In this document: positions 7,464 through 40,153 of the stretch, piece by piece | Numbering within the stretch: the first letter of the stretch is position 1 | Layout: every line of letters begins with the position of its first letter | Origin: an uncultured Spirochaetota bacterium | GTDB lineage: Bacteria > Spirochaetota > Brachyspiria > Brachyspirales > Brachyspiraceae | Reading direction: 5' to 3' | DNA: 64,000 nt | Assembly (NCBI GenBank): GCA_944390575.1 | Contig: CALXQJ010000002.1 | Location: 248,001 to 312,000 of the forward strand | Position numbers and translations under genes: made by a program | The notes under the pieces: generated by a model | What the model was told of the DNA's origin: nothing | What the model saw: only the letters and a program-made list of their open reading frames with translations | Database searches by the model: none

Positions 7464-8042
7464 ATGACAGATAAGTCTATTAAAGAAAAAGAATTACTCA
7501 AAGACTGTGAACTTATAGAAGCTCATAAAAATGGCGACCCTAATGCTCTTGAAATTTTGTTAAGTAGATATAAAAATTATATATTTAATACTTCATATCG
7601 ATTTATGCATAATTATGAAGATTCTATGGATCTCACTCAAGATGTATTAATTAGAGTTTATAAGGCTATAGATAGATATGAAGATAGAAATTATTTTAAA
7701 GGTTGGCTTTATAGAATTATTAGTAATACTGCTATTAATACATATTCTAAAGCATATAGACGTGAGTCTCCATACTTAGAGAAGTTAGAAATAGTAGATG
7801 ATAAAAGATATGATACAGAAAAAGAGTATGAACGTATATATTTGCAAGAAAAAATATATAATGCTTCAAGAAAATTAAAGGGAAAACAAAGGGATGTGTT
7901 TATCTTAAGATATTATGAGAATTATTCTTATAAAGAGATAGCGAGTATATTAAATATTTCTAGTGATTCTGCTAAGAGTAATTATTCATATGCACTAAAA
8001 AAGATGAAAATCTTATTAGATAAGGAGAAAACTCTATTATGA
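7464..8042 (+). CDS. ECF-type RNA polymerase sigma factor
   Basis: The 192-residue protein has sigma region 2 (about 25-95, with NGDPNALEILLSRYKNYIF and DLTQDVLIRVYKAI) and region 4 (about 130-185, with LKGKQRDVFILRYYENYSYKEIASILN followed by a recognition helix), joined by a short linker, as in extracytoplasmic-function sigma factors. AAGGGGGA precedes the ATG. Its stop overlaps the start of the next gene in ATGA, so the two are translationally coupled, the common layout for a sigma factor and its anti-sigma factor. The target promoters cannot be read from the window. Confidence 0.85.
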   Translation: MTDKSIKEKELLKDCELIEAHKNGDPNALEILLSRYKNYIFNTSYRFMHNYEDSMDLTQDVLIRVYKAIDRYEDRNYFKGWLYRIISNTAINTYSKAYRRESPYLEKLEIVDDKRYDTEKEYERIYLQEKIYNASRKLKGKQRDVFILRYYENYSYKEIASILNISSDSAKSNYSYALKKMKILLDKEKTLL

Positions 8043-8395
8043 AATTGCACGAGTTTGTACAATTTAAAAACAAGATAGAGAAAAAAAGAAATCTTTTTGA
8101 CTTACCTTCTTTGCCAGATTCTGAGTGGGAATATATGTTGCAAAGAGCTAAGAATATGAAAGAGATTGAAGTAACTAAAACTTATAGCTTTTTTACTTTA
8201 TTTACTTCTTTTATGTGTTCAAAGAAGATGTCTTTTGCACTTTCTATGGCTATAATTGTCGCATTAGTAATTTCTTTATTTAATATGGAGTTTATGGAGG
8301 AATATAATGCTTTCAAAGAGGAAGGTAATTCTTCACATCAAACTCATAGGGTTAATGTACCTGTAATAAATGTATCTGATAATAGTTTTATATAG
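8039..8395 (+). CDS. Single-TM protein, candidate anti-sigma factor
   Basis: The product is 118 residues: a charged cytoplasmic part (1-65), one membrane helix (about 66-84, MSFALSMAIIVALVISLF) and a short tail. It overlaps the sigma gene by four bases and, by position and topology, is a candidate membrane anti-sigma factor. It lacks the HxxxCxxC zinc anti-sigma motif (only one Cys, next to the membrane) and I recognise no family. The anti-sigma role is inferred from context only. Confidence 0.55.
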   Translation: MKLHEFVQFKNKIEKKRNLFDLPSLPDSEWEYMLQRAKNMKEIEVTKTYSFFTLFTSFMCSKKMSFALSMAIIVALVISLFNMEFMEEYNAFKEEGNSSHQTHRVNVPVINVSDNSFI

Positions 8396-8423
8396 TTGAA
8401 TAAATATTATTATGATATATAAT
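8396..8423 (+). promoter_or_regulatory. Predicted clpC promoter
   Basis: TTGAAT at 8396-8401 and TATAAT at 8418-8423 are 16 bases apart, just after the stop of the preceding gene. The start site would be near 8430, leaving a leader of about 85 bases that holds the inverted repeat at 8439-8483. Confidence 0.45.
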
Positions 8424-8438
8424 ACTTAAAAGTTCTTG

Positions 8439-8483
8439 GATTATACTTTTTTACTTTTTCTTATAGAGTTTAATAGTATAATC
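8439..8483. promoter_or_regulatory. Inverted repeat in the clpC leader
   Basis: GATTATACT (8439-8447) and AGTATAATC (8475-8483) are perfect 9-base inverted repeats 27 bases apart. They could be an operator or an RNA stem. They match neither CIRCE (TTAGCACTC) nor the CtsR site (GGTCAAA). The second arm contains a TATAAT, so it may also mask a second promoter. Confidence 0.35.
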
Positions 8484-8515
8484 TATTATTTTATAATTTT
8501 ACATTAGGATAAAAT

Positions 8516-11005
8516 ATGATGCATCCTTTTCATTTGACTCATAAGGCTAAAGTTGTATTAGAGTTATATGCTCAAGAAGAAGCAAGAAGATTAAATCATG
8601 ATATGGTAACACCAGAACATGTGCTTCTTGGTCTTTTAAGAGAATCTGATGCTTTAGCTACTAAGGCTTTAAAAAAATTAAATATAGATTTAGATAAATT
8701 AAAAGTAGAATTAGAATCTACTATGATAAAGTCTTCTTCTACTACAAGAATATTTGGTACAGTACCCACTTCACCACGTATTCATAAACTTATTACAATT
8801 TCAGCAGAAGAGGCAAAATCTTTAGGGCATAATTATATAGGTACAGAGCATTTATTACTTGGTTTGTTAAGAGAAGAGAGTGGTGTTGCTTTTAATGTAC
8901 TTACTAATTTAGATATAGAAATTAATATGCTTAGAAATCAAATAATGAAACTTATGGGTATTTCTGATAGTATTAATCAGGCTACAGAAAATACTAATGG
9001 TACAGAAGAGGTTGTTCGAAAGATAAAAACTCCTACATTAGATCAGTTTGCTCGGGATTTAACTAAATTAGCAAAAGATAAAATGCTTGATAAGGTTGTT
9101 GGTCGTGAAGCAGAGGTTATGAGAGTTATTCAAATACTTGCACGTCGTAAGAAGAATAATCCTATACTACTTGGAGAGCCTGGAGTTGGTAAGACTGCTA
9201 TTGTTGAGGGGTTAGCTGATAAGATAGTTTCTGCTGATGTTCCTGATATACTTTTAAAAAAGAGGGTTTTAAGTTTAGATTTATCATCTGTTGTTGCTGG
9301 TACTAAATATAGGGGAGAATTTGAGGAGCGTATCAAGAATATTGTTTTAGAGATTAAGAAGTCTGGAAATATTATAGTTTTTATAGATGAACTTCATACT
9401 TTAATAGGTGCTGGTGGAGCTGAGGGGGCTTTGGATGCTGCTAATATGCTTAAACCTGCATTATCTCGTGCTGAGATACAGTGTATTGGTGCTACTACAC
9501 TTGATGAGTATAAAAAATATATAGAGAAAGATGGTGCTTTAGTTAGACGTTTTCAACCTATTAATGTAGAAGAACCTAATGTAGAAGATACTATTTCTAT
9601 ATTAAATGGTATAAAATCTAAGTATGAAGAACATCATAAGGTACGCTATACTGATGAAGCTATTAATGCAGCTGCTACATTAAGTAAGAGATATATATTT
9701 GATAGACATTTACCAGATAAGGCTATAGACTTAATAGATGAAGCTGGTTCTCGTGCTAAGCTTATGAATATGAGTAGACCTGATGAGCTTAAAGCTATAG
9801 ATAAGAAAATAGAAGAACTTGATAGAGAGAAAACTTCTGTACTTGAGGGTGAGCATTATTTAGAGGCTGCTAAGATTAGAGATGAGATTAAGGACTTAAA
9901 AGAAGAGCTTGCTAAGAAAGAAGAAGAGTGGAGAGCTGAGAGAGATAGTATAGAAACTTTAATAGATGAAGATGATATAAGACATGTTATTTCAGAAATC
10001 ACAAATATTCCATTAAAGAGATTATTAGATACAGAAACAAAACGCTTAATAGAAATGGAAAATGAGCTTCATAAAAAAGTTATAGGGCAAGATGAGGCTA
10101 TATCTTCTATTTCAAGAGCTATTAGAAGAAGTAGTGCTGGACTTAAAACATCTAAGCGTCCTTTGGGTAGTTTTATATTTTTAGGTCCTACTGGTGTTGG
10201 TAAAACTGCTTTAGCTAAAGTTTTAGCTGAGTTTATGTTTGGAGATAAAGAATCTCTTATTCGTGTTGATATGAGTGAGTTTATGGAGAAGTTTGCAGTT
10301 AGTAGACTTATAGGAGCTCCTCCTGGATATGTTGGATTTGAGGAAGGTGGCGGACTTACTGAGAAAGTAAGAAGAAAACCTTATTCTTTGATTTTATTTG
10401 ATGAGATAGAAAAAGCACATCCTGATATTACTAATATACTTTTACAGGTGCTTGATGAGGGACAGCTTACGGATAATTATGGTAGAAAAGTAGATTTTTC
10501 TAATACTATTATTATTATTACAAGCAATTTAGGTGCTCGTGATATTGTTAAGGGTAGTTCTTTAGGGTTTAATGTTATTGGTAGTGATAAGGATTCTGCT
10601 GATGTTAAGCGTGTTGCTCTTGAGGAGCTTAAACAAACTTTTAATCCTGAGTTTTTAAATAGAATAGATGATATTATAGTATTTGACACTCTATCTAAAG
10701 ACAACCTAAAAGAGATTATTGATATCATGATTTATGAAATTAATGATGCTATAAAAGAGAGAAATATAACTATACACTTATCTGATGAGGCTAAGGAATC
10801 TATAATAGATAAGGGCTTTGATAGAAAATATGGTGCAAGAAGTTTGAGACGTGCTATACAAAAGGAGATTGAAGATTATATTAGTAGTGAAATATTGTAT
10901 GGTAATGTGAAAGATGGTGACACTATTAATATAGATGCTAATGATGGTGAATTAGTATTTAACTATGTTAAGGCTAAAAAAGAGAAAGAATTATCAAAGA
11001 GATAA
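8516..11005 (+). CDS. clpC: ATP-dependent unfoldase ClpC
   Basis: The 829-residue Hsp100 protein has two N-terminal Clp_N repeats (HVLLGLLRE near 35 and HLLLGLLRE near 110), a first AAA+ ring with Walker A GEPGVGKT and Walker [10 protein letters not shown], a UVR-like middle segment ([20 protein letters not shown]), and a second ring with Walker A GPTGVGKT and [10 protein letters not shown]. The UVR-like segment and the short middle domain mark it as ClpC rather than ClpB, and SSLGFNV is the expected ClpP-docking loop. It unfolds damaged or tagged proteins for ClpP. AGGA sits seven bases before the ATG. No ctsR or mcsAB gene is next to it. Confidence 0.92.
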
Positions 11006-11030
11006 ATAGTATTATTTTTTTGATTCTATC

Positions 11031-11069
11031 AGACGTTTCTTAAATAATTTTTAGGTAACGTCTTTTTTA
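11031..11069 (+). terminator. Terminator after clpC
   Basis: AGACGTT (11031-11037) pairs with AACGTCT (11057-11063) and is followed by a run of six T. The 19-base loop is long, but the position right after clpC supports termination. Confidence 0.6.
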
Positions 11070-11094
11070 TATTTGTTTTAGGAGTTTATAATTT

Positions 11095-11769
11095 ATGGAA
11101 ATTCTTATTATTTTGATTGTATTATTTATAATAATTATTATAGCATTTATATTACACAGATTAGAACAATCAAATAAGAGAGATGATAGCTATAAAGTTT
11201 CTCTCGATGAGGCTATAGAAAATCTTTATAGGTATAATCATAAAAGAAGATATAAAGATCGTAAGTGGTTTTATTATAATAGAAAGAAGAATAAAAGAGA
11301 TATATCAGAGATAAGACTCGATGCTATGGAAAGTGGTAGTATAGCAATAAAAAAAATAATGAATATGGAAGAGAGTAAAATATATTATGCACTAATAAAA
11401 GTATTTAAGAATTATAATATTAATACACAAGTTTCATTTAAAGCATTTTTAAAAGCAGAAGAAGATACAGAAGCTTGGAAAACATTTAGAGATTTTTATG
11501 CTGATTTTTTAATTACATATAGAAGTGGTTCTAAGATGAATGAACCTTTTGCTATTATAGAGTATCATGGCGGTGGTCATTATGGAGATAGTGAAGTTTC
11601 TAGAAGACGTGTTGAGGATAATGATTATATTAGAGAGAAGCTTTTTAATAAGGTTGGTATAAAATACTTTATTATTAAGGGTGATGATATAAAGTCTAAT
11701 AGTAAGTTTATAGATAATAATAAGCTTTATTCTTATTTGCACGATATTTTAAAAGTTTGTGAGGCTTAA
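11095..11769 (+). CDS. Membrane-anchored DUF2726-like protein
   Basis: The 224-residue protein begins with one transmembrane helix (residues 2-22) and ends in a domain (about 105-215) resembling DUF2726, a restriction-endonuclease-like fold: PFAIIEYHGGGHYG, then a charged helix and VGIKYFIIKGDD, matching the family pattern of a Glu strand, a His, and a later strand. DUF2726 proteins are of unknown function. AGGAG precedes the ATG, and the terminator after clpC separates it from that gene. It may be a free-standing gene or the first of the PTS cluster, 66 bases away. Confidence 0.55.
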   Translation: MEILIILIVLFIIIIIAFILHRLEQSNKRDDSYKVSLDEAIENLYRYNHKRRYKDRKWFYYNRKKNKRDISEIRLDAMESGSIAIKKIMNMEESKIYYALIKVFKNYNINTQVSFKAFLKAEEDTEAWKTFRDFYADFLITYRSGSKMNEPFAIIEYHGGGHYGDSEVSRRRVEDNDYIREKLFNKVGIKYFIIKGDDIKSNSKFIDNNKLYSYLHDILKVCEA

Positions 11770-11835
11770 TTTTATTATTGATAAATATGTAAAAATATGA
11801 TAGATTTAATCAAATAATATGGAGGTTTATTTTTT

Positions 11836-12153
11836 ATGAGTTTATCTATCGAAGAAGTTGCTATGACATTAATAGGGAATTCAGGAGAGGCACGTAGTTT
11901 GGCTTTTGAGGCCTTAAGAGAGGCTAAAAGCGGTAATTATGATAATGCTAAGGATTGTCTTGATAAGGCTAAAGAGAGAAGTCTTGCTGCACATAGTATG
12001 CAGACTGAACTTATTTGTAATGAGGCTGATGGTAAGGGTGTTGAGATGAATTTATTAATGGTTCATGCTCAAGATCATTTAATGACTTCTATTCTTGCTA
12101 GAGAATTAATATCAGAAATTATAGAGTTATATAAGAAATTAGAAGATAAGTAA
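11836..12153 (+). CDS. PTS lactose/cellobiose-family IIA component
   Basis: This 105-residue all-helical protein matches the Lac-family EIIA. The motif VHAQDHLMTS contains the phosphorylated His (about H77) and the Asp/His pair (D80, H81) that bind the structural metal in the trimer. It receives phosphate from HPr and passes it to the IIB protein encoded at 14504. GGAGG stands upstream of the ATG. The gene opens a cluster with IIC and IIB, but instead of a phospho-beta-glycosidase the cluster has a glycosylasparaginase. Confidence 0.9.
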   Translation: MSLSIEEVAMTLIGNSGEARSLAFEALREAKSGNYDNAKDCLDKAKERSLAAHSMQTELICNEADGKGVEMNLLMVHAQDHLMTSILARELISEIIELYKKLEDK

Positions 12154-12183
12154 AATATATTAAATTCAACAAAAGGAATAATG

Positions 12184-13146
12184 ATGAATAACAAATGGGC
12201 TATGATAGCTACTTGGCGTATGGCTTGTGATGCTGTTGCTTTTGGTGCTGATTTACTTAAAAATGGAGGAAAGTGTCAGGATGCTGTAGAAAAGTCTATT
12301 ATGATAGTTGAGGATTATCCTTTTTATAAGTCTGTAGGTTTTGGTGGTCTTCCTAATGAAGATTGCGTAGTAGAACTTGATGCTGCTTTTATGGATGGAA
12401 AGACTTTATCTATTGGAGCTGTTGCTGGTATTCGTGATTATAAAAATCCTGTATCTATTGCGAGAAAACTTAGCTCTGATACTTTTAATGTTTTTTTAGT
12501 TGGTGATGGTGCTGAGAATTATGCTCATAATAATGGGTTTGTTCGTCAGAATATGCTTACAGATAGGGCTAAGAAGACTTGGGAAAAGAGAAAAAAAGAG
12601 ATGTATGAGAATAATCTTTCGGCTTATGATGGGCATGATACTGTTTGTATGATTGCTCTTGATAAAGATGATGATATGGCTGTTGCTACTTCTACTTCTG
12701 GTTTATTTATGAAGCGTAGAGGTAGAGTTGGAGATTCTCCTTTATCTGGTTCTGGTTTTTATGTTAATAATGACATTGGAGGGGCTGCTGCTACTGGTGT
12801 TGGTGAAGAGATTATGAAAGGATGTATTTCATATGAAGTTGTACAGAGAATGAAAAGAGGTGAAAGTCCACAAGAAGCTGCACAAAATGCTGTTATGGAT
12901 TTTTCTATGGAGCTTACAAAGAAAAGAGGTAAAGCACTTGCTATATCTGTTATTGCATTAAATAATAAAGGTGAGTGGGGTATTGGTACGAATGTTGAGT
13001 TTACATTTGTAGCTTCAAACTTTGAGAGAGAATGTCATGTTTATATAGCAAATCCTATAGAAGGAAGTAGAGATGTGAAGATAGAGATAGCTTCTAAGGA
13101 GTATATTGAGGAATATAAAAGAAGTATTCAAAAACCTATAGAATAG
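12184..13146 (+). CDS. Cytoplasmic glycosylasparaginase (N4-(beta-GlcNAc)-L-asparaginase)
   Basis: This Ntn-hydrolase of the asparaginase-2 family (about 320 residues) matches glycosylasparaginase, which splits GlcNAc-asparagine into aspartate and 1-amino-GlcNAc. Signature parts are TWRMACDAVAFGADLLKNGG, YKSVGFGGLPNEDCVVELDA, and GHDTVCMIALD, in which the Thr (about T153) is the autocatalytic cleavage site and nucleophile; NDIGGAAATGVGEEIMK holds the substrate-binding residues. There is no signal peptide, unlike the secreted Flavobacterium enzyme, so it should act in the cytoplasm. The second of two tandem ATGs is best spaced from AAGGA. It lies between PTS IIA and IIC genes, which suggests that the PTS imports its substrate. 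Confidence 0.85.
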   Translation: MNNKWAMIATWRMACDAVAFGADLLKNGGKCQDAVEKSIMIVEDYPFYKSVGFGGLPNEDCVVELDAAFMDGKTLSIGAVAGIRDYKNPVSIARKLSSDTFNVFLVGDGAENYAHNNGFVRQNMLTDRAKKTWEKRKKEMYENNLSAYDGHDTVCMIALDKDDDMAVATSTSGLFMKRRGRVGDSPLSGSGFYVNNDIGGAAATGVGEEIMKGCISYEVVQRMKRGESPQEAAQNAVMDFSMELTKKRGKALAISVIALNNKGEWGIGTNVEFTFVASNFERECHVYIANPIEGSRDVKIEIASKEYIEEYKRSIQKPIE

Positions 13147-13185
13147 TGTGATATTTAATAGTATTTTAATAATGATGGAGGAATG

Positions 13186-14469
13186 ATGAATAAGATTATA
13201 ACTATATTAGAAGAAAAATTAGTTCCTGTTGCTGCTTGGATACAAAAAAATAAGTATATTAATGGTATAAGAAGGGCGTTTATTATGGTTATGCCTCTTC
13301 TTATGATAGGCTCTCTTTTTTTAATGATACAAGCTTTTCCATTACCTGAATATCAGAATATGATGAGCTCACTTATGGGGGAAAATTGGAAAGATGTATT
13401 TGATATTCCAGTATTAGCTACATTTTCAATGCTTGGTCTTTATGTTTCTTTTTTAGTAGGGCAACAATTAGCAAAACAGTTTGAGATGGATAGTGTATCA
13501 GTAGGTTTTTTATCATTAGTCTCTTTTTTGATATTAACTCCATTATCAAAGACTACAGAATATGGCAATGTACTTACTTTTGATTGGCTTGGTAGTAAGG
13601 GTATGTTTATTGCTATTATTATAGGGCTTGTAACTACTTTAATATTTAGATTTTTTATAGAGAAAAAGATAATGATAAAAATGCCTGAAGGTGTTCCACC
13701 AGAGGTTATTCGTTCTTTTGAGGCACTTATACCTGGAGCTGTTGTTCTTACTTTAGCTTTAATAGTTAGAGTATTAGTTGCTAAAACTTCTTTTGGTACT
13801 GTTCATGATTTTGTTTATACTGTTTTAGCATTACCGTTAAAAAGTTTAGGTACTTCATTTATAGGGGCATTATTTACTGTTTTATCTATATCTGTACTTT
13901 GGTCTGTTGGTATAAATAGTGGTTCTATGGTTAATGGTATAGTTCGTCCTTTTTGGCTTGAAAATCAAATTCAAAATATAGAAGCTGTAAAAGCAGGTAC
14001 TGAGCTTCCACATATTATTACAGAGCAATTTTTTGATATGATATGGATGGGTGGTGCCGGTGCTACTTTGTCATTATTAATTGCTATTTTGCTTTTTGCA
14101 AGAAGCAAGCATATTAAAACTATAGGACAAATTTCTGTAGCTCCTGGAATATTTAATATTAATGAGCCTATATTATTTGGACTTCCTATTATCTTAAACC
14201 CTATTATGCTTATTCCATTTAATATTATTCCACTTGTAATGGTGACAGTTCAATATATAGCTATGAGTATAGGTCTTGTTTCAAAACCTCTTGGTATTGC
14301 TTTTCCTTGGCCTACACCTGCTATTATTAGCGGTTTTCTTACTGTTGGAGATATATCTGGTTCTATTATACAGATTGTTAATTTATTAATTGGTGCTATG
14401 ATTTATTTACCTTTTTTAAGGATTATAGATAAGGCTTCTAAGCTTGCTGAGTCTGAAGAAAATTCTTAA
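13186..14469 (+). CDS. PTS lactose/cellobiose-family IIC permease
   Basis: The 427-residue membrane protein is an EIIC of the lactose/N,N'-diacetylchitobiose/cellobiose family, with about ten hydrophobic segments and the family stretch SVAPGIFNINEPILFGLPIILNP (given here as SVAPGIFNINEPILFGLP), where the conserved NEP motif lines the sugar site. It moves a sugar or glycoside across the membrane while IIB phosphorylates it. GGAGG at 13177-13181 is too close to the first ATG (13183), so the second ATG at 13186 is preferred. Family members carry beta-linked disaccharides and GlcNAc-type sugars; the actual substrate is not readable from sequence. Confidence 0.9.
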   Translation: MNKIITILEEKLVPVAAWIQKNKYINGIRRAFIMVMPLLMIGSLFLMIQAFPLPEYQNMMSSLMGENWKDVFDIPVLATFSMLGLYVSFLVGQQLAKQFEMDSVSVGFLSLVSFLILTPLSKTTEYGNVLTFDWLGSKGMFIAIIIGLVTTLIFRFFIEKKIMIKMPEGVPPEVIRSFEALIPGAVVLTLALIVRVLVAKTSFGTVHDFVYTVLALPLKSLGTSFIGALFTVLSISVLWSVGINSGSMVNGIVRPFWLENQIQNIEAVKAGTELPHIITEQFFDMIWMGGAGATLSLLIAILLFARSKHIKTIGQISVAPGIFNINEPILFGLPIILNPIMLIPFNIIPLVMVTVQYIAMSIGLVSKPLGIAFPWPTPAIISGFLTVGDISGSIIQIVNLLIGAMIYLPFLRIIDKASKLAESEENS

Positions 14470-14503
14470 AAATTATAAAAATATAAAAAGGAGTATATTC
14501 ATA

Positions 14504-14809
14504 ATGAAAAAAATATTATTACTTTGTGATGCTGGTATGTCTACTAGTATGATGGTTAAGAAAATGAAAGAGGCTGCTGAGAAGAAGGGTATTGAGGCTG
14601 AGATTGATGCTATTGGTATTGATAAGTTTCAAGATAATTTAGATAAGTATGATGTATTTTTATTAGGACCTCAGGTTAAGTATAAAAAGCCTGAATTAGA
14701 AAAGATTGCTTCTGGGGTTGGTAAGAAGATAGATGTTATTAATACTATGGATTATGGTATGATGAAAGGAGATAAGGTTTTAGACTTTGCTCTTGAACTT
14801 ATTGGATAA
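14504..14809 (+). CDS. PTS lactose/cellobiose-family IIB component
   Basis: The 101-residue product begins MKKILLLCDAGMSTSMMV, the phospho-cysteine loop of Lac-family EIIB (Cys8), followed by a small alpha/beta fold. It transfers phosphate from IIA to the incoming sugar. The ATG at 14504 has AGGAG upstream; a longer in-frame reading from 14444 overlaps the end of IIC and is not needed. With separate A, B and C chains the system is complete here. Confidence 0.9.
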   Translation: MKKILLLCDAGMSTSMMVKKMKEAAEKKGIEAEIDAIGIDKFQDNLDKYDVFLLGPQVKYKKPELEKIASGVGKKIDVINTMDYGMMKGDKVLDFALELIG

Positions 14810-14872
14810 GATAAATTAATTTTTATTATATTTGGGTAGCAGGAATGTTACCCTTTTATTTTAGGATTTTTT

Positions 14873-16264
14873 ATGACTATAAAAGAATATATAGATTCTA
14901 ATTTTTCTACTATTTTAGATGATATTATTAGCATTATAAAAATTAAGAGTGTTAAGAGTGATGCTACAGTTAATGCTCCTTTTGGTGAGGATATAAAAAG
15001 ATGTTTAGATAGCACTTTAGATCTTGCTAAGAGGCTTGGATTTAGGGTTAAAAACTTAGATAATTATATAGGTTATGCTGAAATAGGAGAAGGGGAGGAG
15101 TATATTGCTATACTTGGGCATTTAGATGTTGTGCCTGAGGGAGATATTAGTAAGTGGACAGTTCATCCTTATAGTGGAAGTATTATTAATAATTGTTTAG
15201 TTTCAAGAGGTGCTATTGATAATAAGTCTCCTATTATATCTTCTCTTCATTCTATTAAGGCTCTATTAGCTCAATATCCTAATTTTAATAAGAGAGTTAG
15301 AATAATTTTTGGTACTAATGAAGAAAGTGGAGATGAGGATATTAAGTATTATTTAGAGAGAGAGAAAGTTCCAAAATATGCTTTTACTCCTGATGGTCGT
15401 TTTCCTGTTATATTTTCTGAGAAGGGTATTTATACTTTTTCTTTTAGGAGTAAAATTGATTTTGAGAATAGTTGTATTTTAAAAATAGAGTCTGGTAGTA
15501 GGTCTAATGTTGTACCTGAGCTTGCTAAAGTTTTTCTTAAAAAATCTTTATTAGATAAGGTTCAAAGTGTTATAAGCAGTATTAAGTCAGATTGTACTTT
15601 TAATATGTCAGAGTTTGATGATTATTTATGTGTAGATATTAATGGAAAATCTGCCCATGCAAGTTCACCTCATAAGGGTATTAATGCACTTTTGGGAATG
15701 TATATTTTTTTGGATATGGTTTTAGATGATAATGATTCTTGTAAGAAGTTTGTATCTTTTATTTCTAAAAATATTTCTGATACTACAGATGGTAAGTTGT
15801 TAGGAATATATGCTCAAAATGAAGAAGTTGGAGATTTAACTATTTCTGCTGGTATTACTCATATAGTTAATGATGATGAGATTTTTGTTAAGTTTAATGT
15901 GCGATATCCTATATCTATTACTGAAAGCTTTTTAGATGAGACTTTAAATAATAAGGCTAATGAAAATGGGGTATTATTTAAAAAAGAAAATCATAATCCT
16001 CCATTATATTTTCCTAAGGATTCTATATTAGTTAGAACTTTGCAGAATGTTTATAAGGATGTTACTAATAGAGAAGAAGAGCCTGCTTCTTTGGGTGGAG
16101 GAACTTATGCAAAGCTTATGCCTAATACTGTTGCCTTTGGACCTAATTACAAGGAGTTTAATGGTAATGCTCATAGCTTTGATGAGTGTATAGATTTAGA
16201 TATGCTTAAAGTTGGTATAGAGATTTATGCTAAGAGTATATTAAGTCTTAGTGAATATATTTAA
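14873..16264 (+). CDS. M20-family dipeptidase, PepV-like
   Basis: The 463-residue protein is a di-zinc peptidase of the PepV/Xaa-His dipeptidase group. Metal and catalytic residues are visible: LGHLDVVPEG (H83, D85), RGAIDNKSP (D116), FGTNEESGDED (E150/E151), a TPDGRFPVIFSEKG segment and a C-terminal NAHSFDE His. GGGTYAKLMPNTVAFGP is typical of PepV. It likely splits dipeptides in the cytoplasm. It follows the PTS genes by about 60 bases with its own AGGA site, and may help process short (glyco)peptides; that link is inference. Confidence 0.85.
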   Translation: MTIKEYIDSNFSTILDDIISIIKIKSVKSDATVNAPFGEDIKRCLDSTLDLAKRLGFRVKNLDNYIGYAEIGEGEEYIAILGHLDVVPEGDISKWTVHPYSGSIINNCLVSRGAIDNKSPIISSLHSIKALLAQYPNFNKRVRIIFGTNEESGDEDIKYYLEREKVPKYAFTPDGRFPVIFSEKGIYTFSFRSKIDFENSCILKIESGSRSNVVPELAKVFLKKSLLDKVQSVISSIKSDCTFNMSEFDDYLCVDINGKSAHASSPHKGINALLGMYIFLDMVLDDNDSCKKFVSFISKNISDTTDGKLLGIYAQNEEVGDLTISAGITHIVNDDEIFVKFNVRYPISITESFLDETLNNKANENGVLFKKENHNPPLYFPKDSILVRTLQNVYKDVTNREEEPASLGGGTYAKLMPNTVAFGPNYKEFNGNAHSFDECIDLDMLKVGIEIYAKSILSLSEYI

Positions 16265-16285
16265 TATAAAAGGAGTTTTTTTGTT

Positions 16286-16894
16286 ATGATAAGAGAGAAG
16301 TGTATTGGTAGTTATTTAGAGGCTATAGAAGCAGAGGAACTTGGGGCGGAACGTGTTGAACTTTGTGATAATTTATATGAGGGTGGTACTACTCCTTCTT
16401 ATGGTACTATAAAAAAGGTTGTAGAGAAATTGAGTATACCTGTTTTTGTCATTATACGTCCTCGTGGAGGGGATTTCTTTTATAATGAAGATGAGATTGA
16501 GATTATGAAAGAAGATATAAGAGTTTGTAAGTCTTTAGGGGTTTCTGGAGTTGTTATAGGTGCTTTAAATACTAATAAGAGTATTAATTATGATGTTATA
16601 AAAGAGATGGTTGATTTAGCTAAACCTATGAGTGTTACTTTTCATAAGGCTATAGATGAGTTAGAAAATCCAGTTATAGAAGTTCAGAAATTGGCAAAAA
16701 TAGGTGTTAATAGAATACTCACTTCAGGAACTAAAGAGACTGCTTTGGAAGGAAAAGATATTATAAATGATATGATAAAAGAAGCTAAAGATGATATTAT
16801 AATAGTTGTTGCAGGAAAAGTTATAAAAGATAATTTAGAAGAAATATCAAAGCTTATACCTTCAAAAGAATATCACGGAAAAAAGATAGTTTAA
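16286..16894 (+). CDS. cutC: CutC-family TIM-barrel protein
   Basis: This 202-residue protein belongs to the CutC family (PF03932): EAIEAEELGAERVELCDNL, the PVFVIIRPRGGDFFY segment, VSGVVIGALN and VTFHKAIDEL follow the family in order. The family was named for copper homeostasis in E. coli, but that role is disputed and no copper-binding motif is evident. It is about 40 residues shorter than E. coli CutC but reaches the conserved C-terminal YHG. It starts 21 bases after the dipeptidase with a strong AAGGAG, so it appears to be the last gene of the PTS cluster. Confidence 0.82.
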   Translation: MIREKCIGSYLEAIEAEELGAERVELCDNLYEGGTTPSYGTIKKVVEKLSIPVFVIIRPRGGDFFYNEDEIEIMKEDIRVCKSLGVSGVVIGALNTNKSINYDVIKEMVDLAKPMSVTFHKAIDELENPVIEVQKLAKIGVNRILTSGTKETALEGKDIINDMIKEAKDDIIIVVAGKVIKDNLEEISKLIPSKEYHGKKIV

Positions 16895-16915
16895 TATATT
16901 TTTTTTATAAAAAAT

Positions 16916-16947
16916 AAAGAGGCTTAAGTTTATCTTAAACCTCTTTT
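16916..16947. terminator. Bidirectional terminator between cutC and hppA
   Basis: AAGAGG-C-TTAAG pairs with CTTAA-A-CCTCTT (one internal mismatch, short loop), flanked by T-rich DNA on the right and A-rich DNA on the left. It can serve both convergent genes. Confidence 0.65.
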
Positions 16948-16964
16948 TTATTTTTAATTAATTA

Positions 16965-19361
16965 TTATTTATTAATTATTTTTTCAGCAATGCCAAGAAT
17001 CTCTTGAATCTTTGGAGAGAAAGTAATTACAGTTCCTGCAAATACAACACTTATTAAACTCATTAATTTAATAAGAATATTAATAGAAGGACCAGAAGTA
17101 TCTTTGAAAGGATCACCAACAGTATCACCTATAACAGCAGCAGCATGATTAGGGTTTACTATTTTCTCACCAGTTTTCTCATCAACAATTTTTTTACCGC
17201 CTAAATTACCAGCTTCAATATATTTCTTAGCATTATCCCAAGAACCACCAGCATTAGACATCATAACTGCCATAGCAAAACCAGCAGTAAGACCACCAAC
17301 AAGCATACCAATAACACCAGCAATTCCAAATACTAAACCAACAATAACAGGTACAACAATAGCAAGTACAGCAGGAGCAATCATCTCTTTCTGAGCAGAT
17401 TTAGTACAAATCTCAACAGCCTTAGCATAGTCAGCCTTAACACCAGGTTCACCAGCTAAAAGACCCTTAATCTCTCTAAACTGTCTTCTAACTTCCTCAA
17501 CAACACCAGCAGCCGCACGACCAACAGCATTCATAGTTAAAGCACAGAAGAAGAATACTAACATAGCACCAACAAATACTCCAACTAATACCTTAGGATT
17601 CATTAAGTGAATATTGAAAGAGTTCATAAAGTCATTCATATTAATGCTATATACTATTTTATTATAAAGTTCAGAAGAAGTCTCAGCAGTATAATCAACA
17701 GCACCAAGTCTTATAGAAGTTAAATTACCAGCTTTAATAGTTCTACCAAGAGCAGTTTTAATTTCTTCAATATAAGAAGCAATTAATGCCATAGCAGTTA
17801 AAGCAGCAGAACAAATAGCAAATCCCTTACCAGTAGCAGCAGTAGTGTTTCCTAAAGAATCTAAAGCATCAGTACGCTCTCTAACTTCTTCAGGTAATCC
17901 AGACATTTCAGCATTACCACCAGCATTATCAGCAATAGGACCATAAGCATCAGTAGCAAGTGTAATTCCAAGAGTAGATAACATACCAACAGAAGCAAGT
18001 GCAATACCATATAAACCCTGAGAGAAAGCACCAGCATTAGCACCAAAACCACCAGCAAATCCAAAAGAAAGGATAATAGAAACAACAACTGTTACAACAG
18101 GAATTAATGTAGATTGCATACCAATAGCAAGTCCACCAATAATAACAGTAGCAGGACCAGTTTTAGATTGTTCAGCTACCCATTGAGTAGGTCTAAACTC
18201 AGCAGCTGTATAATATTCAGTGAAGTATCCAACAACATTACCAGCAATAAGTCCAACTATTATAGAAACAAATAATCCTAAGTGAGTAGGAAGAAGTGTT
18301 TTTACAAGTAAGAAAGCAACAACTATGATAATAGCACTACTTACATAAACACCAACTCTTAAAGACTTTAATAATTCACCCATAGTAGCTTTTTCTTTAG
18401 TTTTAATAAAGAATACACCAAGTATAGAAGCAAGAGTACCAATAGCAGCTAATATCATAGGAAGAGCTACTGCATAAATAGGACTAATTTCAGGATTAAT
18501 ATATCCAAAAGCAGCAGAACCAAGACTCATAGCAGCAAGTATAGAACCAGCATAAGACTCATAAAGATCAGCACCCATACCAGCAACGTCACCAACATTG
18601 TCTCCAACGTTATCAGCAATAGTAGCAGGGTTTCTAGGATCGTCTTCAGGTATACCAGCTTCTACTTTTCCAACTAAGTCAGCACCAACATCAGCAGCCT
18701 TAGTAAAAATACCACCACCAACACGAGCAAATAATGCTTGGAAAGAAGCACCAACACCAAATGATAACATAGTTGTAGTTATAAAATGCATTTTTGCAGA
18801 TATATATTCAGAAGAATCACGAGCTATAGTAGCACCAAGCCCTAAGAAATCTGTGTTAAACCAGCTATTATCTAACCATAAGTTTAATACAATAAACCAT
18901 AAAGATATATCAAATAAAGCAAGACCAACAACAGTAAGTCCCATAACAGCACCAGAACGGAAAGCAACAGTTAAACCTTGATTTAATGATTTACTAGCAG
19001 CATTTGCAGTTCTTGCAGAAGCATAAGTAGCTGTTTTCATACCTAAGAAACCTGATAAAGTAGAGAAGAAACCACCAGTTAAGAAACCTATAGGTATGAA
19101 TGGATTTTGTACCTTTAAGGCATAAGAGAGAATTGCAAATAAAATAAAAGCACCTGCAAAGAAAAAAGCAATAACTTTATATTGTTGCTTTAAATATGCT
19201 ATTGCTCCTGCACGTACGTGAGAAGCTATTTCTCTCATTTTTTCATTACCTTCATCTTGTTTACGCATCCACTTGTAGAAATAAAGAGCGAATGCTAAAG
19301 TTAATATTGCTGCTGATATTGTAAACCAGCGAGCATTTTGAGCTAATACTTCGTAATTCAT
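16965..19361 (-). CDS. hppA: K+-dependent membrane-bound pyrophosphatase
   Basis: This 798-residue protein with about 16 membrane helices uses pyrophosphate hydrolysis to pump H+ and/or Na+. The substrate site is seen in [33 protein letters not shown] and the C-terminal [14 protein letters not shown]. The segment [14 protein letters not shown] has Ala where K+-independent enzymes carry Lys, so the enzyme belongs to the K+-dependent class. The ATG at 19361 has GGTGAG upstream. Whether it pumps Na+, H+ or both needs residue-level comparison. In an energy-limited anaerobe it would conserve energy from biosynthetic pyrophosphate. Confidence 0.95.
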
Positions 19362-36174: not shown

Positions 36175-36870
36175 ATGAATAGTAAAAATATAGCAGTTGT
36201 GCTTGCTGGTGGAGTTGGTAGTAGAACTGGTTTTGAAACTCCTAAGCAATTTTTGAAGATTAATAATAAAACTATTTTGGAATATAGTTTGGATATTTTT
36301 GATAGTCATAAATGTATAGATGAAGTTTGTATAGTTGCAAGAGAAGAGTATCATAATTATATTTTTGATATTATAAAAAGAGTAGGTTATAAAAAAATAA
36401 AAGCTGTATTAAATGCTGGTAATGAGCGTTATGAATCTACTTTATCTGCACTTGATTATTATAAAGATTATGAAGATAGTAATTTAATTATTCATGACTC
36501 GGCACGTCCTTTAATAACTTCTGATATAATAGATAGTTGTATAGAGGCGTTAAAAAAATATAATGCTATAACAGTTGCAATACCTGTTTCTGATACTATT
36601 GTTGAGATAGAGGATAATTATATAGAAAATATGCCAAATAGAGAAATAATGTATGCGAATCAAACTCCTCAGTGTTTTAGAGTATCTATTTTAAAAGTGG
36701 CTTATAAAAAGGCTTTGAGTGATAAAAATTTTAAATCTACAGATGATTGTAAAGTTGTACATCAATATTTAGATAATGAAAAGGTTTATATAGTTAAAGG
36801 CTCTACAAAGAATATTAAGTTTACAAATAGGGAAGATTTACAAATTATAGAGTTATTAATGAAGCTATAA
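36175..36870 (+). CDS. ispD: 2-C-methyl-D-erythritol 4-phosphate cytidylyltransferase
   Basis: IspD makes CDP-ME in the non-mevalonate isoprenoid pathway. The 231-residue protein starts AVVLAGGVGSRTGFETPKQF, the nucleotide-binding loop, and has IIHDSARPLIT, AIPVSDTIVE and NQTPQCFRVSIL as in the family. It is of normal length. A toxin-antitoxin pair lies directly upstream. Its last six bases overlap the end of the convergent selB gene. Confidence 0.92.
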   Translation: MNSKNIAVVLAGGVGSRTGFETPKQFLKINNKTILEYSLDIFDSHKCIDEVCIVAREEYHNYIFDIIKRVGYKKIKAVLNAGNERYESTLSALDYYKDYEDSNLIIHDSARPLITSDIIDSCIEALKKYNAITVAIPVSDTIVEIEDNYIENMPNREIMYANQTPQCFRVSILKVAYKKALSDKNFKSTDDCKVVHQYLDNEKVYIVKGSTKNIKFTNREDLQIIELLMKL

Positions 36871-38655
36871 TACTTCTCTATCGTTTCCAACTCTTTTTAA
36901 AATTTTTTCTCTTTCTAATGCATTTAGAATTGGTATTGTATATTTTCTTGAAAGACCTGTTTTATCTTTTACATAGGCTATGGTTATTATATCTTTTGAT
37001 TTTAATCCTTTCATTATAATATCTTTTATTTTTTTGTATGTATCTATATGATAATATATACCCTCATCCAAATACATAGCTTGTTTTAATGTTACTAATG
37101 TTTTTATATCTTTAATGGCATTTGGTATTGTTTTTAAATACTTTTCATCAATACCATTTAACTCTTCTTTTTTTAGCTTTTCTAATATAGTTTTTTGAGA
37201 GTTTGTAAGACTTACGTTTTCTACATATTTTTTATAAATACCATTAAATGTCATAATTATTTTTTTATTAATTAAATATTCTATTATAATTTTAGTAAAC
37301 TCATTATCTATATTATAATAATTTCTTATATCATCAAAAGTTATATTATCTTTTTTAAATAGTATTAATTTGTTAATAGTAGAGTCTACTTTTTCTAAGT
37401 ATTTTTTTGATACTAAAAAGTCATTTATTTTTATCGCATTTTCTGTATTATGATTATGATAATTAATATATCCTTTTATAGACAAACTTAAATCAATAAA
37501 TCTACTACTATCAATATTATCACCTAAAAAGTCACCCGCATTTTCTAAAAGAGCAGTTCTCATATTATTATTAGTCTCATCTCCAAAGAAAATATAACCA
37601 CTTCCAATAATCTTACTTCCACCATGACTAATAAGTATACCCCTATCTTTCCAAAATACATTAATAGCTTCTTTAAATTTTAATCTTATAAATCTATTAT
37701 CTATTTCTTTATCATTATTATTTTTCTTTTTGTATATAGGTATAATTTCAGCTATTAAACACTCAGTTCCAATTGCAAACTCAGCATTCTTAATTTTTTT
37801 TAAATATTCTATATCATTTAATTCTTCAATTAATTCTAAAATAATTTCTGTAGTAGAAAATAAAGTTTCTTTTTTTGTTGCAAGTAAATGCCCTCTTCTT
37901 ATTTCCGATTTTTCAAGTCCTCTTAAATTTAATGCAACTCTTGATGTAGATTCTACAATATCTCTATCTTTATGATATGATTGTATATTTCTAATTGATA
38001 TTTCTTTTTTAGTAGGGTAGTGTATTAAAGTATCTTCCTTTTCTATCTTACCATCTACTATACTTCCTGTAATTGTAAGTCCAGCACCTTTTACTGAAAA
38101 AACTCTATCTACGTATATATGAGTATTGTCTTTTTTTGCTATTTTATTTTTAGTTATAATTTCTGTTATTCTATTTTTTAAATGATCTATATTATCTCCA
38201 TTTGTAGAAGATACTTTTATAGTCTCTATTTCTATTTTAAATATTCTATTTAAATTTTGTTTTATATTCTCTTCTTGTATTATTAAATTATCTGAATCTA
38301 CTAAATCTATTTTATTTATAACACAAATAATATTTTTTATCCCCAAAGCATATGCTACTTTAGAATGCTCTTCAGTCATATTCATCCATCCTTCATTAGC
38401 ACATACTACTATCATAACTAAATCAAGACTCCACATTCCAGCAACCATATTACGTATAAAGCGTTCATGTCCAGGTACATCTATAACACCAATATTAATA
38501 TTTTCTGAAGGACTAAAATACCCAAATCCAAGATCTATAGTCATACCTCTTTTTTGCTCTTCAGGTAGACGCATCATAGACATTCCTGTTAATGCTTTTA
38601 TAAGTGTAGATTTACCATGATCAACATGTCCTGCTGTTCCTATTATACTATTCAC
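36865..38655 (-). CDS. selB: Selenocysteine-specific elongation factor SelB
   Basis: SelB brings Sec-tRNA to UGA codons marked by a SECIS hairpin. The 596-residue protein has a translation-GTPase domain (GTAGHVDHGKSTLIKALTG, DVPGHERFIRNM, INKIDLVD), EF-Tu-like beta barrels, and a C-terminal series of winged helices that bind SECIS RNA. The order GMTIDLGFGYF is typical of SelB. It is the last gene of the tRNA-Sec-selA-selB unit, 20 bases after selA. Confidence 0.93.
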   Translation of the reverse strand: MNSIIGTAGHVDHGKSTLIKALTGMSMMRLPEEQKRGMTIDLGFGYFSPSENINIGVIDVPGHERFIRNMVAGMWSLDLVMIVVCANEGWMNMTEEHSKVAYALGIKNIICVINKIDLVDSDNLIIQEENIKQNLNRIFKIEIETIKVSSTNGDNIDHLKNRITEIITKNKIAKKDNTHIYVDRVFSVKGAGLTITGSIVDGKIEKEDTLIHYPTKKEISIRNIQSYHKDRDIVESTSRVALNLRGLEKSEIRRGHLLATKKETLFSTTEIILELIEELNDIEYLKKIKNAEFAIGTECLIAEIIPIYKKKNNNDKEIDNRFIRLKFKEAINVFWKDRGILISHGGSKIIGSGYIFFGDETNNNMRTALLENAGDFLGDNIDSSRFIDLSLSIKGYINYHNHNTENAIKINDFLVSKKYLEKVDSTINKLILFKKDNITFDDIRNYYNIDNEFTKIIIEYLINKKIIMTFNGIYKKYVENVSLTNSQKTILEKLKKEELNGIDEKYLKTIPNAIKDIKTLVTLKQAMYLDEGIYYHIDTYKKIKDIIMKGLKSKDIITIAYVKDKTGLSRKYTIPILNALEREKILKRVGNDREVL

Positions 38656-38675
38656 TTTTATAGTCCTTATATATA

Positions 38676-40040
38676 TTATATTAAGTTGTTATCTATAATA
38701 CTTTGTAGAGATTTTGAAACATAATCTAAATCATTATCAAAAATAGTAATTGTATATATTAATATAAATTCTTTCTTTACTTTTGTAATAATTGGAATAT
38801 CTAAATTATGCATAAATGTAATTGTTTTTTTTATATCTTTGGGTTGGAATCTTATAGCATATGATTTGAAATATACATCTGCCATAGCACCACCACCAGT
38901 CTCTATTTCTTCTTCTACTATGCTAAAATATTTTTGAGCATTTTTTATATTTTTCAAAATATTTTCACATTTTGTTTTTATTACATCAGGATTTATACTT
39001 AATAGTCTTTCAGAGTATCCTTTAAATGTATTAGTTGAATTAAGTCTTTTAATAGCATACTTTTCTAAAATAGATAGTACAGTCTTTCCACATCTAAATG
39101 CTCTCATAAGTGGATTTTTATATATTTTTTCTATATATTCTTTTTTACCAACTATAATACCAGCTTGTACTGATGAGAACATTTTATCTCCAGAAAAGCA
39201 TACTAAGTCTATACCAGCTTTTATAGCACTCTTTATATGCTCATCTTCAGATATACGCTCATCTAATATACCAGCTCCCTCATCATATACTATAGGTATA
39301 TTTTTATCTATATTTTCTCTAAGTTCTTTTAGTGTTAGACTTTTTACAAATCCTCTTATTCTAAAGTTTGATGTATGCACTTTTAATATTAATGCTGTAT
39401 TTTCTGTTATAGCATTTTGATAGTCTTTTATATTTACAATATTTGTAGTTCCTATTTCTACTAATTTAGCTGTAGACTCTCTTAAAATATCAGGTATTCT
39501 AAAACCTCCACCAACCTGTACTTGCTCCCCACGAGATACTATTACTTCTTTGTCTGTGGCAAATGTTTTTAATATTAAAAATAAAGCAGCAGCATTATTA
39601 TTAACTACTAAAGCATCTTCAGCTCCAGTTAGTTTTGAAAGTAAAGTATATAAAAACTCACCTCTAATACCACGCCCCTCATCATTGATATTATATTCTA
39701 AATTATTACTATAAATATTAATATCTCTAACATTATCCCAAATATCTTCGTCTATAGGTGATCTTCCTAAATTGGTATGCATAATAGTACCAGTTGCATT
39801 TATAGTTTTTTTTATAGGTAGATTAGACTTCTTTTTTATATTTTTTTCGCATAGTATTATTATATCTTCTTTTGATATATAAAAATTTTTATTTTTTTTA
39901 TAATTTTCTCTTAACTTATTTAGTGTACTTCTTATTATATCTGTAACTATTGGTCTTGATAGAGTATTAAAATATTTTTTTATATTTTCATTTTCTAAGA
40001 TTGTATTTACTTGTATTAGATTAAAAGTTTTTTCTGACAT
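38676..40040 (-). CDS. selA: L-seryl-tRNA(Sec) selenium transferase
   Basis: SelA converts Ser-tRNA(Sec) to Sec-tRNA(Sec) using selenophosphate and PLP. The 454-residue protein has the N-terminal tRNA-binding region, INATGTIMHTNLGRSP, the aminotransferase core with VVNNNAAALFLIL and the PLP-lysine segment VCFSGDKMFSSVQAGIIVG. The ATG at 40040 (MSEKTFNLIQ) is the real start. A longer reading to 40145 exists only because the tRNA-Sec gene happens to be open in that frame. Confidence 0.93.
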   Translation of the reverse strand: MSEKTFNLIQVNTILENENIKKYFNTLSRPIVTDIIRSTLNKLRENYKKNKNFYISKEDIIILCEKNIKKKSNLPIKKTINATGTIMHTNLGRSPIDEDIWDNVRDINIYSNNLEYNINDEGRGIRGEFLYTLLSKLTGAEDALVVNNNAAALFLILKTFATDKEVIVSRGEQVQVGGGFRIPDILRESTAKLVEIGTTNIVNIKDYQNAITENTALILKVHTSNFRIRGFVKSLTLKELRENIDKNIPIVYDEGAGILDERISEDEHIKSAIKAGIDLVCFSGDKMFSSVQAGIIVGKKEYIEKIYKNPLMRAFRCGKTVLSILEKYAIKRLNSTNTFKGYSERLLSINPDVIKTKCENILKNIKNAQKYFSIVEEEIETGGGAMADVYFKSYAIRFQPKDIKKTITFMHNLDIPIITKVKKEFILIYTITIFDNDLDYVSKSLQSIIDNNLI

Positions 40041-40064
40041 TTTATAACACGCTCTTTTTATAAT

Positions 40065-40153
40065 CGGAAGAGGCAGGAGTTGAACCTGCCAATGTCGTTT
40101 TGACATCCAACGCTTTTGAAGAGCGCGGGAGACACCGGTCCCCATCTGCTTCC
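40065..40153 (-). tRNA. selC: tRNA-Sec (anticodon UCA)
   Basis: The 89-nt minus-strand gene begins GGAAGCAGATGGGGACC and ends CTCTTCCG. The anticodon loop CTTCAAA carries TCA, which reads UGA. The variable arm is long (a 5-6 bp stem around ATGTC/GACAT), and the T arm is GCAGG-TTCAACT-CCTGC. CCA is not encoded. In my hand fold the acceptor stem has five perfect pairs, then either two mismatches (C6-U, A7-C) or seven pairs with C6 bulged. It lies 24 bases before selA, so tRNA and mRNA probably share a transcript. Confidence 0.93.

What the first reader, a model, noticed from the sequence alone, without database searches (positions are those of the whole stretch)
11836..16894. PTS plus cytoplasmic glycosylasparaginase: a possible GlcNAc-asparagine uptake and cleavage pathway
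Complete Lac-family PTS genes (IIA, IIC, IIB) surround a glycosylasparaginase gene where a phospho-beta-glycosidase would be expected. The enzyme lacks a signal peptide, so its substrate must enter the cell. This family's EIIC often carries GlcNAc-type glycosides. Import of GlcNAc-Asn from host mucin or glycoprotein turnover with phosphorylation at the sugar, followed by amidase cleavage to aspartate and a GlcNAc-6-P derivative, would explain the cluster. The dipeptidase and CutC-family genes follow with short gaps and may complete peptide or sugar processing. The enzyme acting on a phosphorylated substrate would be new to me.
Basis: partly seen in the sequence, partly recalled or inferred. 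Interest (0 to 1): 0.62.

Follow-up and report, generated by a model that had tools for sequence, protein, structure and literature searches.

The report
GlcNAc-asparagine import-and-cleavage operon (PTS type)
This bacterium has most likely acquired, from a Fusobacterium, a six-gene operon that takes up the sugar-amino acid left over from digested host glycoproteins (GlcNAc-asparagine), phosphorylates it on entry and splits it inside the cell; the core pathway is already known in Enterococcus, but here a gene labelled 'copper homeostasis', cutC, travels with it and turns out to be a neighbour of the splitting enzyme in many bacteria.

Summary
Window 11836-16894 holds IIA-AGA-IIC-IIB-PepV-CutC, and the AGA is a cytoplasmic glycosylasparaginase by sequence (autoproteolytic HDT and substrate residues present, no signal peptide). 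The exact six-gene order recurs in Fusobacteriales (67-83% identity). AGA and orthologous IIC and PepV are absent from the congeners sampled, and the window AGA nests inside Fusobacteriaceae, so the module came by horizontal transfer. The genome has a fused NagB-NagA, enzyme I and HPr to finish the pathway. (1) All 31 AGA-linked IICs carry Asn where 21 of 22 other Lac-family IICs in the final comparison have His (His250 of 3qnq), a candidate specificity signature. (2) cutC lies beside AGA in Fusobacteria, Clostridia and 43 of 90 Bacteroidia stretches, so it is probably an amino-sugar enzyme, perhaps acting on the glycosylamine AGA releases. Cleavage of the 6-phosphate form follows from PTS chemistry but was not tested here.

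The parts
11836..12153 (+). PTS EIIA, lactose/cellobiose family (active-site His in VHAQDHLM, H77)
   Evidence: PF02255 4e-35; 79-83% identical to IIA of the nearest Fusobacterium loci; His by reading the sequence
12181..13146 (+). Cytoplasmic glycosylasparaginase (AGA), EC 3.5.1.26 type; predicted autoproteolysis between D153 and T154
   Evidence: PF01112 3e-67; best PDB match EmAGA 1p4k; W12, T154, R182, D185, G206, G208 invariant in 17 AGAs = EmAGA W11, T152, R180, D183, G204, G206 (PMC13204146)
13183..14469 (+). PTS EIIC, lactose/cellobiose family, with N245 in place of the usual His
   Evidence: PF02378, TIGR00410; best PDB match 3qnq; N in 31/31 AGA-linked IICs, H in 21/22 others in the final set
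14504..14809 (+). PTS EIIB, lactose/cellobiose family (phospho-acceptor Cys8 in LLLCDAGMST)
   Evidence: PF02302 6e-25; 77-82% identical in the nearest Fusobacterium loci; Cys by reading the sequence
14834..14863 (+). Terminator-like hairpin with T-rich tail between IIB and PepV; position, not sequence, shared with Fusobacterium loci
   Evidence: intergenic sequences of L002, L113, L114, L118
14873..16264 (+). M20-family dipeptidase, PepV/Sapep group; probably trims GlcNAc-Asn-containing glycopeptides
   Evidence: TIGR01887 2e-125; linked to AGA in Fusobacteriales, Clostridia, Enterococcus and Latilactobacillus
16286..16894 (+). CutC family protein ('copper homeostasis'), here part of the AGA module; short fusobacterial type
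   Evidence: PF03932 4e-60; 80% identical to F. mortiferum CutC, against 34-40% to the congeners' own CutC
16916..16946 (.). Terminator-like hairpin between cutC and the convergent gene at 16965-19361 (membrane pyrophosphatase-like)

Best explanation
The cluster is a horizontally acquired catabolic operon for GlcNAc-asparagine, the stub left when N-glycoproteins are digested by glycosidases and proteases. The Lac-family PTS (IIA, IIB, IIC) imports GlcNAc-Asn and phosphorylates the 6-OH of the GlcNAc (inferred). AGA, after self-cleavage at Thr154, hydrolyses the amide in the cytoplasm to aspartate and 1-amino-GlcNAc-6-P (inferred from family chemistry). That product loses ammonia, spontaneously or with help from CutC (speculative), to give GlcNAc-6-P. 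The genome's fused NagB-NagA protein then yields fructose-6-P and a second ammonia (genes shown, flux inferred). PepV probably releases GlcNAc-Asn from small glycopeptides (inferred). The module came from a Fusobacterium mortiferum-like donor.
For: AGA identity and residues. Conserved order: IIA-AGA-IIC-IIB-PepV in Fusobacterium and Cetobacterium; the full six genes in L113, L114 and L118 at 63-83% identity. GntR-PepV-AGA-IIB-IIC-IIA in E. raffinosus and E. gilvus, much like the E. faecalis ega locus, which the title of Combret 2024 ties to GlcNAc-L-Asn use. L. casei AsnA2 cleaves GlcNAc-Asn, and also 6-O-fucosylated GlcNAc-Asn at about 1% of the rate, and pepV is linked (PMC6960285), so a substituent on O6 is tolerated. 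AGA, the orthologous IIC and PepV are missing from the congeners sampled; window AGA groups with F. mortiferum-type AGAs (98/92) inside Fusobacteriaceae (100/98). NagB-NagA fusion, a second NagB, EI and HPr in the genome. Other Lac-PTS IICs of this genome have His at the signature position, and one sits beside GH1, GH4 and MupG hydrolases. N245 signature.
Against: No biochemistry here. Phosphorylation of GlcNAc-Asn by this PTS and AGA activity on the 6-phosphate are inferred; Combret 2024 could not be read. No AGA residue cleanly separates PTS-linked from other cytoplasmic AGAs (R13 is in many but not all). Two origins of N245 are favoured by the tree but one origin is not rejected (AU p = 0.066). 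The regulator and GrdB-like gene of the ega-type loci are absent at this locus.
Confidence: 0.85

Rival explanations
1. The PTS imports a different compound of similar size (core-fucosylated GlcNAc-Asn, chitobiosyl-Asn or a small GlcNAc-glycopeptide) and AGA acts after trimming by other enzymes.
For: L. casei alf-2 imports Fuc-GlcNAc-Asn (PMC6960285); PepV in the module suggests peptide-bearing substrates.
Against: No fucosidase or hexosaminidase gene lies in the module, and none is annotated beside AGA in the Enterococcus and Latilactobacillus loci; E. faecalis with the related locus uses GlcNAc-Asn (title of Combret 2024, cited in PMC12502629 and PMC11160706).
Confidence: 0.1
2. The Ntn-hydrolase is an isoaspartyl peptidase or plain L-asparaginase and the PTS is an unrelated cellobiose/chitobiose transporter that happens to be adjacent.
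For: The PF01112 family includes isoaspartyl peptidases; the IIC scores just over the TIGR00359 'cellobiose' model cut-off.
Against: AGA-type W12 and closest PDB match; the association recurs in several phyla; IIC position 245 differs from all cellobiose/chitobiose IICs examined; no phospho-glycosidase in the operon.
Confidence: 0.04
3. AGA acts only on unphosphorylated GlcNAc-Asn, either imported by another route or dephosphorylated first.
For: Characterised AGAs (EmAGA, L. casei AsnA2) were assayed on unphosphorylated substrate.
Against: Lac-family PTS transport is coupled to phosphorylation (established knowledge); no phosphatase gene is seen in the module.
Confidence: 0.08

Closest known systems
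Enterococcus faecalis ega locus (EgaG glycosylasparaginase + Lac/cellobiose PTS + GntR + dipeptidase), Combret et al. 2024
   Same: AGA, Lac-family PTS and dipeptidase together; the title ties it to GlcNAc-L-Asn use
   Different: Gene order differs; no GntR and no GrdB-like gene here; CutC present here; the IIC falls in another clade of the Lac family than the Enterococcus raffinosus IIC
Lacticaseibacillus casei alf-2 cluster (alfHC, asdA, alfR2, pepV, asnA2, sugK), mBio 2020 PMC6960285
   Same: Cytoplasmic AGA (AsnA2) linked to pepV; N-glycan-derived glyco-amino acid
   Different: MFS permease and kinase instead of a PTS; transport needs the fucosylated substrate, and a fucosidase is part of the cluster
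Fusobacterium mortiferum-type IIA-AGA-IIC-IIB-PepV-CutC locus (L002/L143, L113, L114, L118)
   Same: Same genes in the same order, 63-83% identity each; probable donor lineage
   Different: Fusobacteria have a divergent gene with a Rep3_C domain upstream, absent in the window; in F. mortiferum an IS element probably splits pepV and cutC
Elizabethkingia meningoseptica glycosylasparaginase (EmAGA)
   Same: Family, autoproteolytic HDT site and substrate residues
   Different: EmAGA is exported; the window enzyme is cytoplasmic and a distant homologue (5e-60)
E. coli ChbBCA / B. cereus 3qnq-type PTS
   Same: Lac-family PTS, IIC fold, conserved NINE motif
   Different: His at position 250 of 3qnq against Asn here; usual partner enzymes are phospho-glycosidases

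Membership tests
Glycosylasparaginase (EC 3.5.1.26) | Autoproteolytic His-Asp-Thr site with nucleophilic Thr | tested here: met
   H152-D153-T154; D and T invariant in 17 AGAs, H nearly so; cleavage itself not assayed
Glycosylasparaginase (EC 3.5.1.26) | Active-site Trp and Asn-binding Arg/Asp/Gly (EmAGA W11, R180, D183, G204) | tested here: met
   W12, R182, D185, G206
Glycosylasparaginase (EC 3.5.1.26) | Hydrolysis of GlcNAc-Asn | not testable with these tools
   needs enzyme assay
Lactose/cellobiose-family PTS | IIA (PF02255), IIB (PF02302) and IIC (PF02378/TIGR00410) all present | tested here: met
Lactose/cellobiose-family PTS | Phosphorylation residues (IIA His, IIB Cys) and IIC Glu of the NINE motif | tested here: met
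   IIA H77, IIB C8, IIC Glu of NINEP by reading the sequence and by alignment
Chitobiose or cellobiose PTS (ChbC/3qnq type) | His at IIC position 250 (3qnq), present in the chitobiose/cellobiose members examined | tested here: not met
   N245 in window and all AGA-linked IICs; that this His defines the specificity is my inference
E. faecalis ega-type GlcNAc-Asn PTS locus | AGA + Lac-family PTS + dipeptidase in one cluster | tested here: met
E. faecalis ega-type GlcNAc-Asn PTS locus | GntR regulator and GrdB-like gene | tested here: not met
   Neither gene seen among the ORFs of 7464-19361; upstream neighbour is DUF2726
E. faecalis ega-type GlcNAc-Asn PTS locus | PTS-dependent GlcNAc-Asn uptake | not testable with these tools
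   needs growth and phosphorylation assays
L. casei alf-2 type pathway | MFS permease AlfH, fucosidase AlfC, kinase SugK | tested here: not met
   none in the cluster

The most novel reading that the evidence does not exclude
CutC proteins, annotated as copper homeostasis factors in bacteria and humans, are amino-sugar enzymes; in AGA-linked operons CutC hydrolyses the glycosylamine released by glycosylasparaginase (1-amino-GlcNAc or its 6-phosphate) to GlcNAc(-6-P) and ammonia, a step now assumed to be spontaneous.
Probability: 0.3. Interest if true: 0.8.

Novelty: new variant of a known kind. Interest (0 to 1): 0.5.

Why it matters
It shows that the GlcNAc-Asn PTS pathway, reported for E. 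faecalis, is a module shared between Fusobacteria, Clostridia, lactic acid bacteria and the window's lineage, mobile between phyla, and it offers a sequence signature in IIC for finding more. More broadly, the recurrent AGA-cutC neighbourhood gives a testable biochemical role for a conserved family whose 'copper' name rests on weak evidence (own knowledge).

Tried and rejected
AGA residues specific to a 6-phosphate substrate: R13 and the K/R-rich stretch before GRVGDS looked promising but are not confined to PTS-linked AGAs, nor R13 present in all of them. An AlphaFold model of AGA from seven sequences reached only pLDDT 63 and was not used. Foreign base composition as evidence of transfer: the module is only slightly richer in G+C than other window genes and the donor type is also low in G+C, so uninformative. 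Finding the empty insertion site in congeners: the DUF2726 and pyrophosphatase loci of congeners are not syntenic with the window. Combret 2024 is not held. Papers joining CutC with glycosylasparaginase or N-glycans: none relevant found; absence from this library is not proof. The native CutC loci of congeners show no recognised amino-sugar neighbours (by eye), which weakens the claim that all CutCs do the same thing.
Full report
What is there. Six genes on the + strand, 11836-16894: PTS IIA, a PF01112 hydrolase, PTS IIC, PTS IIB, an M20 dipeptidase of the PepV/Sapep group and a CutC protein. The hydrolase matches Elizabethkingia glycosylasparaginase best (5e-60) and isoaspartyl peptidases much less well (1e-38). 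It starts where mature EmAGA starts, so it has no signal peptide. Positions W12, T154, R182, D185, G206 and G208 are invariant across 17 AGAs and correspond to EmAGA W11, T152, R180, D183, G204 and G206, listed as key residues in PMC13204146. It is the only PF01112 protein in the genome.

Is the cluster conserved? Yes. IIA-AGA-IIC-IIB-PepV is found in F. mortiferum, other Fusobacterium-type genomes and Cetobacterium, and three Fusobacteriales loci have all six genes in the same order. In F. mortiferum itself cutC (80% identical) lies at the start of another contig after what reads as the tail of an IS605-type transposase gene, so pepV-cutC is probably split by an insertion sequence there. Other Fusobacteriales have IIB-IIC-GrdB-AGA-PepV; one clostridial locus has IIA-IIB-IIC-GrdB-AGA-PepV-CutC; Enterococcus raffinosus and E. 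gilvus have GntR-PepV-AGA-IIB-IIC-IIA; Latilactobacillus curvatus has AGA-GntR-GrdB-IIC-PepV. AGA occurs in 26 of 96 Fusobacteriales and 6 of 391 Clostridia sampled at the thresholds used.

Origin. AGA is absent from all 25 congeners and the 3 other members of the family searched. The best congener IIC is only 37% identical, PepV has no full-length ortholog among the 17 congeners searched, and the congeners' CutC is a different type, mostly 35-38% identical, while the window genome has only the fusobacterial type. The window AGA groups with the F. mortiferum-type loci (98/92) inside Fusobacteriaceae (100/98). I conclude horizontal acquisition of the whole module from a Fusobacterium. Base composition neither supports nor opposes this.

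Mechanism. The PTS has its phosphorylation residues (IIA H77, IIB C8, IIC Glu of NINEP, read from the sequence). IIC aligns end to end with 3qnq. At the position of 3qnq His250, a residue I recall as lying by the sugar C6 hydroxyl (own knowledge), all 31 AGA-linked IICs have Asn against His in 16 of 16 other IICs of the genus; in the final non-redundant set 21 of 22 other Lac-family IICs have His, including E. coli ChbC, the Borrelia IIC, 3qnq and the others of this genome, and LacE has Gln. With that column removed the AGA-linked IICs fall in two clades, one of them sister to a His-bearing Niallia IIC, suggesting the change arose twice; a single origin is not rejected (AU p = 0.066). One of this genome's other Lac-PTS IICs sits beside GH1 and GH4 hydrolases and MupG, the usual arrangement; here AGA takes that place. 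Downstream, the genome has a fused NagB-NagA, a separate NagB, enzyme I and HPr. The most likely route is GlcNAc-Asn in by PTS as the 6-phosphate, AGA to aspartate and 1-amino-GlcNAc-6-P, loss of ammonia to GlcNAc-6-P, then NagA and NagB. L. casei AsnA2 accepts a 6-O-fucosylated substrate at about 1% of the rate of GlcNAc-Asn (0.26 against 20.9 umol per mg per min, PMC6960285), so substitution at O6 is not excluded by the fold. Every catalytic step in this organism is inference.

What is known. PMC11160706 describes the enterococcal glycosylasparaginase locus ega: EgaG, EIIB and EIIC of a lactose/cellobiose PTS, a GntR regulator and a dipeptidase, citing Combret et al. 2024, whose title states that GlcNAc-L-Asn use depends on the catabolic and transport enzymes of that locus. 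I could not read that paper, so I do not know whether it tested the 6-phosphate. PMC6960285 independently links pepV and asnA2 and proposes PepV for glycopeptide trimming, although a pepV mutant grew normally on the glyco-amino acid.

CutC. In Bacteroidia, 43 of 90 AGA stretches examined carry cutC, 38 of them downstream on the same strand; three Hymenobacter plasmids have AGA-cutC with a four-base overlap, near GH92, ROK or nagB genes in part. Acidaminobacter and a clostridial MAG have AGA-cutC with no PTS beside it. Related genomes share some of these arrangements by descent, but gene orders differ between phyla, and chance placement of one gene among several thousand would give almost none. 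Many Bacteroidia AGAs carry Tat-like signals and CutC does not, so CutC acts on something in the cytoplasm. A glycosylamine hydrolase is one candidate, because AGA releases 1-amino-GlcNAc, whose hydrolysis PMC6960285 describes as non-enzymatic and favoured by acid. The native CutC genes of congeners lack recognised amino-sugar neighbours, so the role may not be universal.

Regulation. A terminator-like hairpin lies between IIB and PepV in the window, and hairpins of different sequence with T-rich tails lie at the same place in four Fusobacterium loci, so PepV-CutC may be expressed by read-through or separately. No dedicated regulator is adjacent; the Fusobacterium loci have a divergent gene with a Rep3_C domain that the window lacks.

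Verdict. Observation confirmed, interpretation supported; a new variant of a known pathway, with the cutC association and the IIC signature as the parts worth following.

Noticed in passing
window 16286-16894; L005, L006, L113, L114, L118, L152, L153, L159, L160, L166, L173-L262: cutC is a recurrent neighbour of glycosylasparaginase: Fusobacteria, Clostridia, and 43 of 90 Bacteroidia stretches (38 downstream on the same strand). In Bacteroidia many AGAs start with Tat-like twin-arginine signals while CutC has none.
   Followed up: partly
L163, L164, L167: Other plasmid-borne cutC genes sit beside MurQ/ROK, ROK/M81/peptide ABC, or a BadF-type kinase, again suggesting sugar or amino-sugar metabolism.
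   Followed up: no
window 36865-40153 (-): Selenocysteine cluster: selB, selA and tRNA-Sec; the tRNA-Sec gene overlaps the mechanical 5' end of the selA ORF.
   Followed up: no
L135:7837-9801 (own genome, contig C7): A single 654-aa protein fuses NagB (1-250) and NagA (267-637), which would convert GlcNAc-6-P to fructose-6-P in one polypeptide.
   Followed up: partly
L138:7808-13021 (own genome): Another Lac-family IIC lies in a run with MupG-like 6-phospho-N-acetylmuramidase, GH1 and GH4 genes.
   Followed up: no
L002 end and L143:1-280 (F. mortiferum): pepV and cutC lie at contig ends; the cutC contig begins with what reads as the tail of an IS605-type tnpB, so an insertion sequence probably separates them.
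   Followed up: partly
L132 (G089): The AGA gene of one Fusobacteriales genome is split into two overlapping ORFs, a probable frameshift.
   Followed up: no
L125-L131, L133, L134, L152, L153, L070: A GrdB-like (glycine/sarcosine/betaine reductase selenoprotein B family) gene accompanies AGA and IIC in other lineages; its role is unknown.
   Followed up: no
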